Shown here: positions 52,953-60,900 of the stretch, in pieces
How positions within the stretch are numbered: position 1 is the first letter of the stretch
Layout: each line of letters begins with the position of its first letter
Assembly (NCBI GenBank): GCA_016292145.1
Contig: JAEFBA010000003.1
Location: 1 to 64,000 of the forward strand
Direction: 5' to 3'
Origin: Saccharofermentans sp.
GTDB taxonomy: Bacteria > Bacillota > Clostridia > Saccharofermentanales > Saccharofermentanaceae
DNA length: 64,000 bases
The notes under the pieces: model-generated
Databases searched by the model: none
The model's input: only the letters and a program-made list of their open reading frames with translations
Told to the model about the DNA's origin: nothing
Program-made: the position numbers and the translations under genes

Positions 52953-53081
52953 GTCTGTAACGCAAATATCATATAAATCAACGTTTTTAAGCCATTCTTC
53001 ATAAAATGGCAACACTTTGATATACCAAGTATTGTGCAAGTTGCACAACCAAATGATTTTCATTTGGTATCTTCTGCGATA

Positions 53082-53110
53082 TTGCGAACTCCATAGCCAG
53101 CAAGTATTAT
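53082..53110 (+). promoter_or_regulatory. Sigma-A-type promoter for the 53.1-53.75 kb non-coding transcript
   Basis: TTGCGA - exactly 17 nt - TATTAT. Confidence 0.75.
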
Positions 53111-53116
53111 TAGGCT

Positions 53117-53753
53117 AGCTCCAAGGAATACGGAAGCGAGAACTTCCAGATCCGAGGGAGGCCGCCCGAAGCAATTGTCGAGCAGGCGCAGGGAAGAACC
53201 AGAGTTGGAAAGAACTTATGGCGAAGCCGAAGAGACGAAGCCGGAGACAACAATCGAAGGTTGATACAAAGTCCGAGATGAGAACTGAGGGAGTGACGAG
53301 CGAGTGGTTGAAGGTGACGTAGTCATGCAAGCCACAGGTTGTAACAATTAGTTGATTCGGTATTCGGGACCGCGAGTAGGTGAGATGTCACCATCGACAG
53401 GAAAGAACCGTAGCCGCAGCGGATGTTACACCGGTTCGTGCAAACCGAGTAGCCGGCCAGGCTGTCGAGCTGCAAGCGAAGCCGCAAGGTGGAGGGAGCA
53501 GACCACAATCGAATAGCGTAATGTTCGGTGAATGGAGACATGAGATGCACGGTGTGATTGAGTGTTGCAGCAAATCGATTAGTTGTAACGATATCACATA
53601 AAGCTCGGGTAGTGGTTAGGAAAGGGCCTTTTGGTAGGACGGAAGAGCGTAGGAAGATGAGCGTGAATGCGTGATCTTTGTAAGTAATCTAATTTGGTTC
53701 GTTGGAGCGAAAAAGGAGATCCCGATGATCTAGGTCACCGGGATCTTTCTTTT
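53117..53753 (+). ncRNA. Candidate large (~640 nt) structured non-coding RNA (ornate large RNA class; family not established)
   Basis: No credible ORF. Promoter 7 nt upstream of 5' end; 5' GCTCCAA (53118-53124) complementary to TTGGAGC (53702-53708); many internal hairpins; terminator at the 3' end; purine-rich + strand. Confidence 0.75.
53717..53753 (+). terminator. Intrinsic terminator of the ncRNA (could also serve hpt on the opposite strand)
   Basis: agatcccg...cgggatct followed by ttcttttg. Confidence 0.85.
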
Positions 53754-53777: not shown

Positions 53778-54323
53778 TTATTTCCGCTTGGGGATCTGAG
53801 CGATATAAGGAAGATTTCTTCCAATCTCATCCCTGTCCAAGCCATAGCCTGCAAGCCACTGGTCATTGATCTCAAAGCCGAAATATTTGACGGGGATGGT
53901 CATAAGAAGCCTGTCGGGGTTTAAGAGCATTGAGCATAGAGTTATATCCCTGGGCTTCTTCATTTCGAGATTTTGGATGATGTAAGCAGTGGTAAGGCCG
54001 GTTCTGATGACGTCTTCCACAACAAGAACGTGCTTGTCGGTAATATCAATGTCGATATCCTTGGTGATGCGGACGATGCCTGTTTTCGAGGTCGTGTCAG
54101 GAATGCTCGAGAACCCTACCATATCGACCTTGATGGGAAGATCGATCGCTCTGGTAAGGTCAGAGAGGAAATACAGAGAGCCCTTGATAACGCCGATGAC
54201 GATAAGTTCCTTATCCTTGTAATCTTCGGTGATCTGCCTGCCTAATTCCTTTATCCTGTTTTGGATGGTCTCTTCACTGTAAACAACACGCTCGGTATTA
54301 AGAGCTTCTTCGAGATTAGCCAC
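53778..54323 (-). CDS. hpt: Hypoxanthine phosphoribosyltransferase
   Basis: 'LIVIGVIKGSLYFLSDL', 'VLVVEDVIRTGLTTAYII' PRPP motif. Confidence 0.92.
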   Translation of the reverse strand: MANLEEALNTERVVYSEETIQNRIKELGRQITEDYKDKELIVIGVIKGSLYFLSDLTRAIDLPIKVDMVGFSSIPDTTSKTGIVRITKDIDIDITDKHVLVVEDVIRTGLTTAYIIQNLEMKKPRDITLCSMLLNPDRLLMTIPVKYFGFEINDQWLAGYGLDRDEIGRNLPYIAQIPKRK

Positions 54324-54335
54324 TTAATGACCTCC

Positions 54336-55295
54336 TTAAGAATTATCGCCAACGCCGCCGAACATCTTCAGGCGGTCGACGAGTTCGTTGAAATCTTTCT
54401 TATAAACGATGCGGATATTGGTGCCCGGATAGAGCTCTTTTACAAGACGCATCTTTTTATTCTTCTTCGTAACATAACGCTGGTCCATCGTCGTGAGCTC
54501 AAGATAGAGGTTGAACTTCGGCAGATAGAAGTCGGGCGATATCGCCATAGTGACATTGCCTTCAGCATCCCATTCAACCGGGAAAGTCTTGGGTTCATAG
54601 AGCCACTCGATGTTATAAAGGCTCAAGATCCTTGCAAACTCCTCTTCGGTCTCATTCTTGAAAGCAATATTCCTGGTCTGGTGATCGATCGTATTGGATG
54701 AATCATTGGACTCGGCGAGCTTGACCCTTAAGTCATGCTTCCTGGCAAGCTCGGCAATGGCATCGACGCATTCGTCAACGCTTAAACGATCCGTGTTAAG
54801 GATGAGATCGAACTGTTCGGGAGAAGTAATATCCTTGCCGTAGACTGTCCTGACGAATTTCCTGTGCTTGCGGTCGCCTATATCAAGGACTTCGCTGGCC
54901 TCATCCGTGGTAATGCGGTATTTCTTCGCGATCGTATTGAGCCTTGTCGTCTCACTTGCCGTAACCCTGACGTGAATGGCGCCCGGGAAACCTGACAAAA
55001 GGACGCTTCCGCCCATGCCGAGGATTATAAGGTCCTTATCTTTGGATTCCGACGCAAGCGCGCGGATCCTTTCAACAAGGATATCGGCATATGTCCTGTC
55101 GCTGCCGGGAAGTGTCAGGTCAAAGAATTTGGCACTCTCATTAAGTCTGTCCAAAGTACCCTGATTAATCTCACCAAAGAAATTCTCAAGCGCGTACTTG
55201 CGCGATACAACAGTCGTTCCGAGGCGCGCGGCAAGGGCATCAGCAATCTCATCTCCGAGACTTCCGTTCTGTCTTGAGATAGTGATTATCGCCAT
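54336..55295 (-). CDS. Cytidylate kinase-like protein with C-terminal nuclease-like domain
   Basis: 'IITISRQNGSLGDEIADALAARLGT' (PF13189-like); C-term 'YNIEWLYEPKTFPVE...ISPDFYLPKFNLYLELTTMD'. Confidence 0.65.
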   Translation of the reverse strand: MAIITISRQNGSLGDEIADALAARLGTTVVSRKYALENFFGEINQGTLDRLNESAKFFDLTLPGSDRTYADILVERIRALASESKDKDLIILGMGGSVLLSGFPGAIHVRVTASETTRLNTIAKKYRITTDEASEVLDIGDRKHRKFVRTVYGKDITSPEQFDLILNTDRLSVDECVDAIAELARKHDLRVKLAESNDSSNTIDHQTRNIAFKNETEEEFARILSLYNIEWLYEPKTFPVEWDAEGNVTMAISPDFYLPKFNLYLELTTMDQRYVTKKNKKMRLVKELYPGTNIRIVYKKDFNELVDRLKMFGGVGDNS

Positions 55296-55440: not shown

Positions 55441-55516
55441 GCCATCTTAGCTCAGTTGGTAGAGCAGCTGATTTGTAATCAGCAGGTCGTGGGTTCGAGT
55501 CCCACAAATGGCTCCA
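55441..55516 (+). tRNA. tRNA-Thr (anticodon TGT), CCA encoded
   Basis: Cloverleaf GCCATCT / D-arm GCTCAGTTGGTAGAGC / anticodon stem-loop CTGATTTGTAATCAG / T-arm GTGGGTTCGAGTCCCAC / AAATGGC T CCA; one C-A mismatch in the acceptor. Confidence 0.95.
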
Positions 55517-55642: not shown

Positions 55643-55981
55643 TCAGGCGGACTGACGCCCTTTGAGGAATTTATCGAATTCTTCTCTCTTGATTCTTCTG
55701 TGAGATCCAATCCAGATGACAAAGGGACATTCTTTGTCATTAGTAAGCTCTCTGATTCGGTTCATTCCTATTCCGAAAAGCTTTGATGCCTCTGTGACGC
55801 TCAAGAGTTTTTTCTCTTTTAGCTGGTTGAGGTCGACTTCTTTGGTCTCGTTATGTTTGGTGGTTTCTTTAGCTGGAGCAGACTTCAATACTTCAGCCAG
55901 GTAAGCTGCACAGTTCTCGCTTTTTACTACAGGTGTGAGCTGCTGGTCAATAATGATGTTGATGTTATCTTTGTCTTTCAT
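55643..55981 (-). CDS. Excisionase-like / MerR-type HTH DNA-binding protein
   Basis: 'LLSVTEASKLFGIGMNRIRELTNDKECPFVIWIGSHRRIKREEFDKFL' typical Tn916 Xis-like fold. Confidence 0.75.
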   Translation of the reverse strand: MKDKDNINIIIDQQLTPVVKSENCAAYLAEVLKSAPAKETTKHNETKEVDLNQLKEKKLLSVTEASKLFGIGMNRIRELTNDKECPFVIWIGSHRRIKREEFDKFLKGRQSA

Positions 55982-57135
55982 GATAAGTTCCTTTCTGAAT
56001 ATGAGATGATATGTGACGACTGTGATGATGTGACGGCTTTATTGCCACAGTGTTGATTCAGTTCGATTATGTTGCCACAGAGTATGAGATCAAACGGATA
56101 GCATCCTCCTTCTTCGGTGTTATGAGTCTTCTGAGGGAATTGATCGATTTTTTCAAAGCTCAGATATGTGCCGTCACGCTTGTGTTCTCTGGCAAAACGG
56201 AATCCCATTTTTGCAAGCTCGTTCTTTCTGTTCCAGAGTTTTCCGCTTATTGATTGCGGCTTTTTGCTGGCTTTTATCAGATTACAGAACTCCGTAGCAG
56301 TGCCATGAAAGGCTTCGTGTTCTTTCAGGTAATCGAGCGCTTTTCTGAGATCATCATCTGCCTGAAATGCATCTTCAATGGGTGTATTCTCTTTGACAAG
56401 TTCCCAGTGGCTGAGTGTACTGTTGAATCTGATCGTGAGAACACGTTCTTCCATATCGCGGCTGCGAATATGAAGTTTAACATCCGTATCAGAAGATTCT
56501 TTGCGCATAATGAATGCACCATCGGATGCTCCGAACAGACCATTAGTACCCAAGATATCATCGAACGGGTCAATCGATCTCATCTTGCGGGTGTGATGAA
56601 TAAGCAAGATCGTGACATTATGATCTTCACAGAACTTGTGAAGAGGGTTGATAGTGTTGTAATCCCCCTGATAAGGATTCTTGGTGTTAATATCTGCTTT
56701 GTTCTGTTCGCAACGGATAGCAGCAAGTGTGTCTATGATGAACAGACCGATATCCGGATGATCTTTAAGCGCATCTTCAAGTTGTTCTTCCAGGCCGCCG
56801 CCGATTGGAGCAGCATCCGTGCTATACATTAATTCTTTTGGGCATTCATTAGCAATACTGAACAAGCGGTCCTGCAGCCTTTTCTCGCCATCTTCTAGGC
56901 AGAGATATAACACATCTTTCTTTTTGGTGTCGTAATTCCAAAGGTTCATACCTGTGCTGATACACAAGGCAATTTGAAGTGCCATCCATGACTTACCGAC
57001 TTTTGCGCTGCCGCAAAGAAGATATAAACCTTTGCCCGGAAGAAAGTGATCGATCAGGGGATCGATGCTTTCGAATTCCTTTTCAGCAAGATTCTTTACG
57101 GTATCTACCGTAAGCGGTTTAAATTGTTTTTTCAT
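55978..57135 (-). CDS. AAA/RecA-like replicative helicase (RepA-like) of mobile element
   Basis: Walker A 'LLCGSAKVGKSWMALQIAL', 'LFIIDTLAAIR', 'ILLIHHTRK'. Confidence 0.8.
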   Translation of the reverse strand: MKKQFKPLTVDTVKNLAEKEFESIDPLIDHFLPGKGLYLLCGSAKVGKSWMALQIALCISTGMNLWNYDTKKKDVLYLCLEDGEKRLQDRLFSIANECPKELMYSTDAAPIGGGLEEQLEDALKDHPDIGLFIIDTLAAIRCEQNKADINTKNPYQGDYNTINPLHKFCEDHNVTILLIHHTRKMRSIDPFDDILGTNGLFGASDGAFIMRKESSDTDVKLHIRSRDMEERVLTIRFNSTLSHWELVKENTPIEDAFQADDDLRKALDYLKEHEAFHGTATEFCNLIKASKKPQSISGKLWNRKNELAKMGFRFAREHKRDGTYLSFEKIDQFPQKTHNTEEGGCYPFDLILCGNIIELNQHCGNKAVTSSQSSHIISYSERNLS

Positions 57136-57155
57136 ATATACGATAACTCCTTGTT

Positions 57156-58553
57156 TTATCTTGCTCGACCGCCACGGCTTCTTTGTTTTTGTTGTGACTG
57201 AAGCTGTTGTTGAAGTCTTTCGGCATGTTCCAACACCTCATCGGTCGATATGTAGCAGTCATCACATATTTTGAGTTCATGCCGGATATCTGCCATCTCT
57301 TGCGAGATCTCTTTTATTTCACGTTTGAGGCTGGTGACGAATGATTGATGCCCGTTTTTCTCGTGATATCTCAGCCATGAATATCGTTCGTTCTTCTTTT
57401 CCTGCAAAGCTTCGAGCTGCTTGTTATACCCGGCTTTTACTTCGGATATTGGCCGCTTGTCGTACACCTCGTGTTTGCAGATGAAATCCAACATCTCGAT
57501 ATAGTGATCTAACTTACGGATATCTTCGCGGATATACATAGAGATGTGTTCTTTCCGTTTTCGCGGACTGCTGACAAACGTATATAGTTTGAAACAGTAC
57601 CATCTGAACAAATGAGGCTTGGGTGCTAATTTCTGCGCTGGCGGATCCCACTCCTTGATATCGATCTTGTTTTGAGGATGAAACTGAATGCCCGGAGTTA
57701 ATGTGTTCTTGATAATCCTTCTGTAAATGGCATCAGTATCATAATCAGGACCGAGATTCCTGAATCTGAAATAACCCTTTGCATCAGGCGGTTTTAATCC
57801 CGGACATTTTAACGGCTCATGATTCTTCCCGAAGAACTTAAACTCGTATCCGAGTTCATGCATCATTTCGGCAAAATCGTTCCATGAACTGGAGAGTCGG
57901 ATCGCATAATCGATATCTTCACGGATCGTGCCTCGTATTGTGTACTTTCCTTCGCGTTCGGCTTTCCATTCGTCATATGTTTTGCCTTTCGCGGTGGAAG
58001 GGTTCCTGATGGTGTTCAGACCACGTTCACGGCATAAGCGGTCACTGATCTCCTGCATCTTGCGGTAATCGGAATTCATTCGATAAAATTTGTAACCGTC
58101 TGCGAAAGAAACTGAGTTAAGGACAAAATGATTATGATAATGACCGGTATTAAGGTGTGTCGCAACCACGACCTGGAAACGATCACCCCATAATTCTTTT
58201 GCCAGCTCGACACCGATCTCGTGTGCTTCCTCTGCAGTTATCTCACCGGGCCCTTCAAGGAAAGACTGATAGCCGTGATAGGCGAGTCGTCCGCCTTCCT
58301 TGTGCCAGCGCTGTTTGACTTCAATGAATTCTTCGAGCGCGGTATCAGGATCGCAGTTAACGCCGGTGACATACATCATTTCATCTGTCTTATCCTCATT
58401 GCAGGCGTATCCGAGAACGTCACGGATATGTTTCATGGCCGCATTAGCTTCGGGAGCTTCTTCTGGTCTTTGTGTCGTCTTCTCGGGATTCTCGATATAG
58501 TTGAGAACGGTGTCCATGCGGCACTTAACAGCCCAAACTGATGTTACTGCCAT
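57156..58553 (-). CDS. Relaxase / mobilization nuclease (MOBP-like)
   Basis: 'ATHLNTGHYHNHFVLNSVSFADGYKF' HxxxGxxHNH motif. Confidence 0.88.
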   Translation of the reverse strand: MAVTSVWAVKCRMDTVLNYIENPEKTTQRPEEAPEANAAMKHIRDVLGYACNEDKTDEMMYVTGVNCDPDTALEEFIEVKQRWHKEGGRLAYHGYQSFLEGPGEITAEEAHEIGVELAKELWGDRFQVVVATHLNTGHYHNHFVLNSVSFADGYKFYRMNSDYRKMQEISDRLCRERGLNTIRNPSTAKGKTYDEWKAEREGKYTIRGTIREDIDYAIRLSSSWNDFAEMMHELGYEFKFFGKNHEPLKCPGLKPPDAKGYFRFRNLGPDYDTDAIYRRIIKNTLTPGIQFHPQNKIDIKEWDPPAQKLAPKPHLFRWYCFKLYTFVSSPRKRKEHISMYIREDIRKLDHYIEMLDFICKHEVYDKRPISEVKAGYNKQLEALQEKKNERYSWLRYHEKNGHQSFVTSLKREIKEISQEMADIRHELKICDDCYISTDEVLEHAERLQQQLQSQQKQRSRGGRAR

Positions 58554-58781
58554 TTAGCTACCATCCTTTCTTATCGTCTTTCCGAAATGTGATTTTGCGG
58601 CGGATCCGTCGCGGTATCCCGTGATGCTCCTTCCGACCAACAAGCTTCTCAAAACTTCTGATCGGGACAGACCGGATTCTTCAGAGATCTTCTTTAAAAG
58701 TTCGTCTTCTTCTTTGCTCAGCATCACTTTGAACTCGACGGTGCGCTTCCTGTTGGACTTAATTTTCATTCGACTGATCAC
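58554..58781 (-). CDS. MobC-like ribbon-helix-helix relaxosome accessory protein
   Basis: 'RTVEFKVMLSKEEDELLKKISEESGLSRSEVLRSLL'; adjacent to relaxase. Confidence 0.7.
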   Translation of the reverse strand: MISRMKIKSNRKRTVEFKVMLSKEEDELLKKISEESGLSRSEVLRSLLVGRSITGYRDGSAAKSHFGKTIRKDGS

Positions 58782-58802
58782 CTCCTTCGGGTGAAATGAT
58801 TG

Positions 58803-58999
58803 AACGCATATTGCGTTCCTCGGGGTCTCAGGGGTCGCTCCCTGACAAGCTTTGTATTTTCGTGTTCCCGAAAATACGTTGCTTGCTAAGACAAAGATCC
58901 ACTTCGTGGGGCGGTAGAGTCTGGGTCAAGCCGCAAAAACTGACCGCAAGTTTGGTATAGTTTTCCTTCATTGCAGTTTTAGTGTTTTCCGTAAATAGG
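58803..58999. other. Candidate oriT region (hairpin cluster upstream of mobC)
   Basis: gaacgca-tat-tgcgttc; tcaggg-gtcgct-ccctga; gtattttcg-tgttcc-cgaaaatac; then ttggtata...tataccaa. Confidence 0.5.
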
Positions 59000-59081
59000 C
59001 CGACTTATACCAACGCACAAGCACGACCGCTTTTGCGAAAAAACTGTTTATGTTGTAGTGGATCCTTGTAGCTTCCAGGAA

Positions 59082-59192
59082 CTATCCCGGGCCGCTGGGT
59101 TGGATCAGATCGGGCAGGATGGGAGCTTTCAATAAAGACAGCAGGATCATAACTACTGTTTCTCTTTTTATATGACCTTTTGTCTTTATCAT
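59082..59192 (-). CDS. Possible 36-aa micro-ORF MIKTKGHIKRETVVMILLSLLKAPILPDLIQPSGPG
   Basis: ATG preceded by gaggtgagagaa RBS; same orientation as mob module. Confidence 0.35.
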   Translation of the reverse strand: MIKTKGHIKRETVVMILLSLLKAPILPDLIQPSGPG

Positions 59193-59469
59193 TTCTCTCA
59201 CCTCGCTTTCTCCGGCAAGTTATAAGAACTTATGTTCGATTATGTACGGTTAGATTATATGAGGGTGGAAAACGGTTTGCAAGCCTTATTTTTCAAGGTG
59301 TCCCATAAATGGAACAGATGGATAAAAGTACGATTAATGGAACTTTCTGCCTGAGATAATATAAGTTTATAAAATTCTCGTATAGTAAAATTTGCATGAT
59401 GTAATTTATATATTCGAGAGGAAACTCTTAGTAGGGATAATCATCAGTTTAATTCTGCAATAGGAGAGA

Positions 59470-59501
59470 AGAACCAGCCCAGCCGAGGCTGGGCTGGTTC
59501 T
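59470..59501. terminator. Perfect 15-bp inverted repeat upstream of IS30 element (terminator-like, no strong T tract)
   Basis: agaaccagcccagcc-ga-ggctgggctggttct. Confidence 0.45.
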
Positions 59502-59530
59502 GAAGTTTCTGACATTGTATATTCTGTAGA

Positions 59531-60900
59531 GTTACCGTCTGCCAAAAGGAGGCAGAAATGAACGAGTATGGTTTTGGACAGCTATCCTTCTCAGAGAGGG
59601 TGGCTATTGAAACGGGAATATGCAAAGGAGAAACATTCAGACAGATTGCAAAAAGAATTGGAAGACATCCATCGACAGTCTCTCATGAAATAAAAACGAA
59701 CAGGACATTCATTCGCGGACATTTCTATTTTGGCAATGACTGCCGCTTTGCAAGAAATTGCAAGATAAAAGGCCTTTGTGATTCCGCTTGCAACTACGGA
59801 TGCAGGAATTGCCGAAGTCACAACTGCAAGGAATATTGCGACAGATACATCTCGTCCGATTGCGCGAGACCCAAACAGTATCCCTACGTCTGTAATAACT
59901 GCGAAAGCAAAAAGCTGTGTCACAAGACAAAATATTTCTACAGCGCGAAGTATGCGGAAGCAGCAGTTACAAGGCGAAGATCTGAGAGCCGGAAAGGCAT
60001 CAGATTATCAGAAGAACAATTCAGCGAAATGGATAAGTTAATAACCAAGTACGTTAAGAAAGGCCAGCCGTTAGCGCACATATACGCTGAACATGAACAG
60101 GAACTTCCTGTGTGTCTTCGGAGCATATACAACTATATAGATTCCGGAGAGATGACGATTAAGAACATCGACCTAAGGCGCAAGACTTCTTATCGGAAAC
60201 GCCAAGGAAACAAGCCTAAAGTCTCATTCAATCAGGAATACCGCAGTGGCAGGACTTATGTAGACTACGAATATGAATGCAAGCACGGATATATAAGTGA
60301 GGCCATGACGGTTCAGATGGATACCGTAAAAGGAAGAAGAGAAGCAGGCAAACGTCTTCTGACGATGATCTTCAGGAAGAATTCGGTAATGCTTATGTTC
60401 TTAATGCCAGACGGGACTTCTGCTTCCGTAAAGGGTGTATTTGACTATCTGGAGATTATGCTGGGAGATGAGACATTCAGGAATCTGTTCCCGGTATTTC
60501 TTACAGATAACGGCGGAGAATTCAAGAAGGTCAACGAACTGGAGTATGACGATGACTTGATGCCAAGAACCAGGATTTATTACTGCGATCCCATGGCTTC
60601 GTGGCAGAAGGCACAAATTGAGAAGAACCATGAATTCATCCGCTATGTCATTCCGAGAGGCAAGAGCCTTGATCCATATACGGACGATGACATAACGCTT
60701 CTTATGAATCACATAAACAGTGTCAAGCGTCCAAGCCTTGGAAATAAGGCACCTTACGAATTGATTGACGATGAAGACGAAGATATGCTCAAGCTGATGT
60801 ATCTATTAAAAATGGACCTCATCCCTGCGGACGAAGTCCAATTAACCTCTGACTTATTCAGACAAAAATAAGTAAGTCAGATTCTGTTGCAGACGGTAAC
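59531..60900 (+). mobile_element. IS30-family insertion sequence
   Basis: 12-bp perfect terminal inverted repeats gttaccgtctgc / gcagacggtaac flanking an intact IS30-type transposase. Confidence 0.8.
59558..60871 (+). CDS. IS30-family DDE transposase
   Basis: N-term HTH 'LSFSERVAIETGICKGETFRQIAKRIGRHPSTVSHEI'; DDE 'VQMDTVKGRR', 'FLTDNGGEF', 'KAQIEKNHEFIRYVIPRG'. Confidence 0.93.
   Translation: MNEYGFGQLSFSERVAIETGICKGETFRQIAKRIGRHPSTVSHEIKTNRTFIRGHFYFGNDCRFARNCKIKGLCDSACNYGCRNCRSHNCKEYCDRYISSDCARPKQYPYVCNNCESKKLCHKTKYFYSAKYAEAAVTRRRSESRKGIRLSEEQFSEMDKLITKYVKKGQPLAHIYAEHEQELPVCLRSIYNYIDSGEMTIKNIDLRRKTSYRKRQGNKPKVSFNQEYRSGRTYVDYEYECKHGYISEAMTVQMDTVKGRREAGKRLLTMIFRKNSVMLMFLMPDGTSASVKGVFDYLEIMLGDETFRNLFPVFLTDNGGEFKKVNELEYDDDLMPRTRIYYCDPMASWQKAQIEKNHEFIRYVIPRGKSLDPYTDDDITLLMNHINSVKRPSLGNKAPYELIDDEDEDMLKLMYLLKMDLIPADEVQLTSDLFRQK

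What the first reader, a model, noticed from the sequence alone, without database searches (positions are those of the whole stretch)
53117..53753. Large (~640 nt) orphan structured RNA with its own promoter and terminator
Seen: ~800 bp between a COG2426-like gene and hpt contain no credible ORF but a complete transcription unit. Promoter is TTGCGA-N17-TATTAT (53082-53110); predicted start is ~53117. GCTCCAA at the extreme 5' end (53118-53124) is perfectly complementary to TTGGAGC (53702-53708), closing a ~590-nt body. Internal stem-loops include GGAAG/CTTCC (53132-53147), GAGTT/AACTT (53202-53217), GTGG.TTG/CAA.CCAC with inner TGAC/GTCA (53304-53335), CGGT/ACCG (53358-53372), GGTGA-gatg-TCACC (53379-53392), CGGTT/AACCG (53432-53447), GTGAT/ATCAC enclosing ATCG/CGAT (53554-53597). 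A strong terminator follows at 53717-53753. The strand is purine-rich with many GAAG/GNRA-like loops. Knowledge: this size and end-pairing resemble the large ornate RNAs ROOL, GOLLD and OLE. I favour ROOL-like by size and Firmicutes context, but cannot verify the family. A chromosomal copy a few kb from a tRNA and a mobilizable element is notable.
Basis: partly seen in the sequence, partly recalled or inferred. Interest (0 to 1): 0.88.

Follow-up and report, generated by a model that had tools for sequence, protein, structure and literature searches.

The report
New large clostridial noncoding RNA family
The stretch is very probably a real, independently transcribed structured RNA that matches no described RNA family; relatives occur in several families of anaerobic gut and environmental bacteria, usually beside one particular kinase-plus-nuclease-like protein gene that may be its partner.

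Summary
Window 53117-53708 encodes a 592-nt noncoding RNA with a conserved promoter, ends that pair, and a terminator. The ROOL-like label does not hold: no Rfam 15 family matches it or its relatives.

It is a family. A covariance model finds the core in 81 of 87 genomes of the host genus (Saccharofermentans-like rumen Clostridia). Relatives 245 to about 660 nt long occur in other families of the order, in four further families of the class, and in one more distant family (three copies). About 120 distinct sequences share a TTGACA/TATAAT-type promoter, a start at AGCUCCA(G/A)GGAA, an end at GGUUCGYUGGAGC, and compensated changes in the closing helix. A 49-pair structure gave 19 doubly changed pairs, against 10 in shuffles.

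The RNA gene sits beside hpt and a gene for a cytidylate-kinase-like protein with a T7-endonuclease-I-like C-terminal domain. That gene is rare in the class (13 of 246 sampled genomes). The RNA was found near it in 12 of those 13, on either side of the pair; the thirteenth could not be tested. In the genus, the six genomes without the RNA also lack the protein gene. I infer an RNP partnership. Its biochemistry is unknown and no expression data were available.

The parts
53082..53110 (+). promoter: -35 TTGCGA, 17-nt spacer, -10 TATTAT
   Evidence: conserved upstream of the RNA start in relatives
53117..53708 (+). noncoding RNA body, 592 nt; inferred +1 is A53117 (AGCUCCAAGGAAUAC...), 3' end ...UUGGUUCGUUGGAGC
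   Evidence: alignment of 29 full-length genus relatives A2; core covariance model hits in 81 of 87 genus genomes
53118..53124 (+). P1 closing helix, 5' half (GCUCCAA)
   Evidence: all cells paired, compensatory change; order-wide variants
53702..53708 (+). P1 closing helix, 3' half (UUGGAGC)
53160..53163 (+). P2 long-range helix, 5' half (GGCC), pairs with 53625-53628
   Evidence: double changes
53625..53628 (+). P2 long-range helix, 3' half (GGCC)
53304..53335 (+). hairpin 53304-09/53330-35 with inner stem 53314-17/53323-26, the best covarying part
   Evidence: tree-based null E<0.001 for two pairs; 7 doubly changed pairs
53358..53372 (+). hairpin CGGU/ACCG
53379..53392 (+). hairpin GGUGA-GAUG-UCACC
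   Evidence: about 6 independent double changes at one pair
53352..53578 (+). long-range helix 53352-55/53575-78
   Evidence: all cells paired, 2 doubly changed pairs
53426..53557 (+). long arm 53426-53440/53539-53557; competes with UGUAACA/UGUUACA (53340-46/53424-30) and the local hairpin 53432-53447
53717..53753 (+). intrinsic terminator, probably bidirectional (shared with convergent hpt)
   Evidence: sequence; stem sequence differs but pairs in relatives
53778..54323 (-). hpt, hypoxanthine phosphoribosyltransferase, convergent with the RNA
   Evidence: TIGR01203; linked in many families
54336..55295 (-). candidate protein partner: cytidylate-kinase-like domain (PF13189) plus PD-(D/E)XK-type C-terminal domain
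   Evidence: co-occurrence

Best explanation
The stretch encodes a trans-acting structured noncoding RNA of a family not described in Rfam. RNA polymerase starts at A53117 and stops at the 53717-53753 terminator; the ends pair to close the molecule around long-range helices and arms (supported by comparative sequence evidence). The family is chromosomal and old. It ranges from about 245 nt to over 600 nt because lineages insert large domains inside a conserved frame (P1, P2 and the following arms). I infer that the RNA works as the RNA part of a ribonucleoprotein with the protein encoded next door, a cytidylate-kinase-like protein carrying a PD-(D/E)XK domain of the T7 endonuclease I type. That domain would recognise branched helices, and its conserved E-x-T in place of E-x-K suggests binding rather than ordinary cutting. 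Shown by comparison: the RNA gene, its ends, its structure, its distribution and its linkage. Inferred: the partnership and everything about activity.
For: RNA: alignment; 81 of 87 genus genomes, almost always one copy; 97.6% of cells paired; 19 doubly changed pairs against 10.1 in shuffles and at most 7 in slid controls; two pairs beyond a tree-based null; about 120 distinct members; P1 variants GCUCCAG/CUGGAGC, GCUCCAA/UUGGAGC, GCUUCAG/CUGAAGC, GUUCCAG/CUGGAAC, ACUCCAG/CUGGAGU, GCUCUAG/CUAGAGC; promoter consensus; gaps break any frame.

Partner: in an independent pattern search over 292 class genomes, the three RNA finds outside the order (G201, G340, G356) all have the protein gene beside the RNA, although only 13 of 246 sampled class genomes carry it. 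Starting from the protein gene, the RNA was then found in G343, G287 and, partly, G397. In the order, 17 further protein-gene loci had the RNA in their flanks, with no hit in 627 kb of reversed sequence. RNA and protein gene stay linked although the RNA lies downstream of hpt in some lineages and upstream of the kinase gene in others. In the genus, 73 genomes have both, 6 have neither, 6 have the RNA only, none the protein only (Fisher p about 2e-6 by hand, ignoring relatedness).
Against: No expression data. The RNA occurs without a detected protein gene in G012 (99% complete), G043 and five incomplete genus genomes. Several protein-gene loci showed no RNA in the fetched flanks, some of them cut by contig ends. 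In G036 the two genes lie on different contigs. hpt is linked too, so the linkage could be gene-order inertia. Genus counts are not independent events. The PD-(D/E)XK assignment rests on weak sequence matches (best E 0.0085 in Pfam, 0.019 in PDB) and the C-terminal part of the structure model has low confidence.
Confidence: 0.6

Rival explanations
1. The RNA is a stand-alone ornate RNA that folds or assembles by itself, in the manner reported for OLE, ROOL and GOLLD, and its linkage to the kinase-nuclease-like gene and hpt is only conserved gene order.
For: Similar size, closed ends and elaborate structure. The RNA persists without a detected protein gene in G012 and G043, and three copies occur in G845 with no kinase gene or hpt on the fetched contigs. 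OLE, ROOL and GOLLD form RNA-only homo-oligomers (PMC12286853).
Against: The RNA changes side of the gene pair yet stays linked. In the genus, all six genomes without the RNA also lack the protein gene.
Confidence: 0.25
2. A divergent member of a known RNA family (ROOL, OLE, GOLLD, raiA, RNase P, 6S, tmRNA, SRP or an intron) that the Rfam models fail to recognise.
Against: No Rfam match on the window or on divergent members, including permissive scans. RNase P occurs as a separate gene in 18 of 20 genus genomes, the host included; a separate 6S match occurs in 9 of 14 tested genomes, though not in the host genome itself. ARAGORN finds no tmRNA in the window.
Confidence: 0.05
3. A regulator tied to purine salvage: the RNA affects the convergent hpt mRNA or responds to purines.
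For: Convergent with hpt in many families, sharing a terminator region.
Against: The RNA is not in the hpt leader and does not overlap hpt. In G356, G340, G343 and G287 it lies on the far side of the kinase gene, divergent from it.
Confidence: 0.08
4. An intergenic sequence conserved for another reason, not transcribed.
For: No RNA-seq was available here.
Against: Conserved promoter at a fixed distance, conserved ends, terminators whose stems change sequence but keep pairing, and compensatory changes throughout.
Confidence: 0.02

Closest known systems
ROOL RNA (RF03087)
   Same: Large structured RNA; rumen origin of the name; Firmicutes host
   Different: No covariance-model match; ROOL is mostly in phages and prophages near tRNA islands (PMC12286853), whereas this is a syntenic chromosomal gene with no phage copies found
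OLE RNA
   Same: About 600 nt, Gram-positive anaerobes, chromosomal; OLE works with proteins as an RNP (PMC11332333)
   Different: No Rfam match; different neighbours; this family shrinks to about 250 nt in relatives
raiA motif / ModT RNA
   Same: Structured noncoding RNA widespread in Clostridia (PMC11706538)
   Different: No Rfam match; different conserved ends and gene context
GOLLD RNA
   Same: Large ornate RNA
   Different: No Rfam match; GOLLD is phage-borne and mostly longer (PMC12286853)
Cytidylate_kin2 (PF13189) proteins and T7 endonuclease I
   Same: The neighbouring protein has a PF13189 N-terminal domain like PDB 3fdi/3hdt and a C-terminal domain whose only PDB sequence matches are T7-type endonuclease I
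   Different: I found no described protein with this pairing in the libraries searched; the E-x-K motif reads E-x-T; no RNA partner is known to me for either family (own knowledge)

Membership tests
ROOL (RF03087) | match to the curated covariance model | tested here: not met
   no match at the gathering threshold or with E up to 10 on the window, nor on divergent relatives
ROOL (RF03087) | phage or prophage location, often near tRNA islands | tested here: not met
   vertical synteny across the genus; no phage or plasmid hits; the single tRNA 1.7 kb away borders an unrelated element
ROOL (RF03087) | RNA-only multimeric cage | not testable with these tools
   needs cryo-EM or native gels
OLE, GOLLD and raiA | match to the Rfam covariance model | tested here: not met
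   whole-library scans
RNase P class A (RF00010) | covariance-model match; normally one gene per genome | tested here: not met
   separate RF00010 genes in 18 of 20 genus genomes including the host
6S RNA (RF00013) | covariance-model match | tested here: not met
   no match of this RNA; separate 6S candidates in 9 of 14 genomes, not in the host genome
structured noncoding RNA (general) | compensatory base-pair changes beyond controls | tested here: met
structured noncoding RNA (general) | a transcript of the predicted size | not testable with these tools
   no RNA-seq available
PD-(D/E)XK nuclease (neighbour protein) | E..D..E-x-K active site on the nuclease fold | tested here: inconclusive
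   PDB sequence matches to T7-type endonuclease I only; E and PD present but the last position is T; model confidence low there

The most novel reading that the evidence does not exclude
An undescribed ribonucleoprotein of Clostridia: a structured RNA of 250 to 660 nt with invariant paired ends that acts with a dedicated kinase-like/PD-(D/E)XK protein, the two being inherited together across several bacterial families.
Probability: 0.5. Interest if true: 0.9.

Novelty: new variant of a known kind. Interest (0 to 1): 0.8.

Why it matters
New large structured RNA families are rare, and most known ones (ROOL, GOLLD, OLE) still lack a clear function. This one comes with compact natural versions of about 250-290 nt, a candidate protein partner defined by co-occurrence, and named isolates that carry it (YAD3003, AB4001 and KHP2). 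Structure and function are therefore directly testable.

Tried and rejected
ROOL, OLE, GOLLD, raiA or intron identity: no Rfam match.

Divergent RNase P or 6S RNA: separate genes found.

Phage or plasmid origin: no BLAST hits; 105 viral contigs with the 15-mer look like chance, none having the promoter and 3' end.

Protein coding: gaps break every frame.

Kinase-hpt gene fusion (suspected): an artefact of my script; a stop codon separates the genes.

Tree-based covariation over all column pairs: only two pairs were individually significant, so I relied on structure-restricted counts.

Model R3, meant for wide searches, lost to a simple promoter-plus-5'-end pattern (against 54 and 67).

Two of the 123 scan hits are spurious. 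L289, L290, L291 and L293 are chance hits without the 3' end.

A viral-contig search with hpt found nothing and was not needed.

Full report
The observation. The body runs from A53117 to C53708, followed by a hairpin and a T-rich run (53717-53753). Folding is more stable than 20 of 20 shuffles, z = -3.2. The promoter by itself is a chance-level match, but comparison rescues it.

Relatives in the genus. A DNA search of 59 genomes found homologues only in the host genus. A covariance model of the 163-nt core then found it in 81 of 87 genus genomes, almost always as one copy. Public records name these as Saccharofermentans sp. and related rumen Clostridia, including isolates YAD3003, AB4001 and KHP2. 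Gene order around it is largely kept: radical SAM gene, small membrane-protein gene, PF06695 gene, RNA, then hpt and a cytidylate-kinase-like gene on the other strand.

Structure. On 29 aligned members a 49-pair structure keeps 97.6% of cells paired, with 19 pairs changed on both sides; shuffles give 10.1 and slid versions at most 7. A stricter tree-based null over all column pairs leaves two pairs clearly significant, both in the stem at 53314-53326. Supported helices are P1 (53118-24/53702-08), P2 (53160-63/53625-28), the arm 53304-53335, hairpins 53358-72 and 53379-92, and long-range helices 53352-55/53575-78 and 53426-40/53539-57. A switch between the two is possible and untested.

A wider family. 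The first 15 nt, AGYTCCARGGAATRC, occur in nearly every genome of the bacterial family and in scattered genomes of the order, far above the reversed-pattern control. Inspection showed a near-consensus promoter directly upstream and GGTTCGCTGGAGC 245-590 nt downstream, with terminators. A promoter-plus-5'-end pattern then found members in other families of the class and three copies in a more distant genome. In all, 123 distinct scan hits, about 121 of them genuine, share the anatomy. P1 occurs as GCUCCAG/CUGGAGC, GCUCCAA/UUGGAGC, GCUUCAG/CUGAAGC, GUUCCAG/CUGGAAC, ACUCCAG/CUGGAGU and GCUCUAG/CUAGAGC, which is strong compensatory evidence. Sizes run from about 245 to about 660 nt, so the window's 592 nt is an expanded form; the RNA is mostly 58-69% purine in the sampled members.

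Linkage. hpt and the kinase-like gene lie beside the RNA in many families. In most the RNA faces hpt; in G356, G340, G343 and G287 it lies upstream of the kinase-like gene and diverges from it. So the side changes but the linkage stays. A search of 246 class genomes found the kinase-like gene in 13. The RNA is near it in 12 of these, cut by a contig end in G397 and about 4 kb away in G040. In the thirteenth (G395) the protein gene itself is cut by the contig end. In the order, 17 more protein-gene loci proved to have the RNA in their flanks, with no hit in 627 kb of reversed sequence. In the genus, the six genomes without the RNA (G006, G023, G033, G124, G125, G144) all lack the protein gene; six have the RNA but no detected protein gene, of which only G012 is near-complete. 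These counts ignore shared ancestry.

The neighbour protein. Residues 3-169 are PF13189; the fold matches PDB 3hdt and 3fdi. The C-terminal 105 residues match only T7-type endonuclease I in the PDB and weakly Phage_endo_I in Pfam. The segment reads FKHPAEEEFA...SPDF...Y(I/L)E(I/L)T, with T in place of the usual catalytic lysine. The AlphaFold model is good for the N-terminal domain and poor for the C-terminal one. I first thought some species fuse this protein to hpt; a stop codon between them shows they do not.

What it is not. No Rfam family matches the window or its relatives, also in permissive scans. RNase P is a separate gene in 18 of 20 genus genomes; 6S candidates are separate in 9 of 14 tested genomes, though none was detected in the host itself. 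No phage or plasmid copies were found. The ROOL label therefore fails, although working like an ornate RNA is not excluded.

Most likely mechanism. I commit to an RNA that forms a stable, closed particle and acts with the neighbouring protein, whose nuclease-like domain would recognise a branched part of the RNA. The RNA gene, its ends, structure and distribution are supported by comparative evidence. The partnership is inferred from co-occurrence and linkage. The activity is unknown. The papers found in my searches mention no such RNA in the parts I saw, but I could not read the motif lists of earlier large surveys, for example PMC8040213, so an unnamed earlier prediction remains possible.

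Noticed in passing
window 55441-55516 and 55643-60871: tRNA-Thr(TGT) next to a mobilizable element: Tn916-type excisionase, AAA_25 ATPase, MobA/VirD2 relaxase and an HTH_38 protein that looks like an IS30-type transposase.
   Followed up: partly
window 53340-53346, 53424-53447, 53539-53557: Mutually exclusive pairings: two well-paired but non-covarying helices compete with a long covarying arm; possible conformational switch or pairing with another molecule.
   Followed up: partly
window 54336-55295: Unusual protein: cytidylate-kinase-like domain without a classical Walker A GK(S/T), joined to a T7-endonuclease-I-like domain with E-x-T.
   Followed up: partly
L347, L348, L349 (genome G845): Three copies of an A-rich 330-345-nt version of the RNA in one distant genome, with no hpt or kinase-like gene found on those contigs.
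   Followed up: partly
L147 and L150 (genomes G040 and G043): Tandem pairs of the RNA 500-700 nt apart, each with its own promoter.
   Followed up: no
L150 copy b: The second RNA copy runs into a long array of GATCAAAA repeats at the contig end.
   Followed up: no
window 53040-53075: Inverted repeat CCAAATGATTTTCATTTGG with TGCACAA just upstream of the RNA promoter, conserved in close relatives; terminator of the upstream gene or an operator.
   Followed up: no
L352 (genome G012): A near-complete genome keeps the RNA but has no detectable kinase-like gene.
   Followed up: partly
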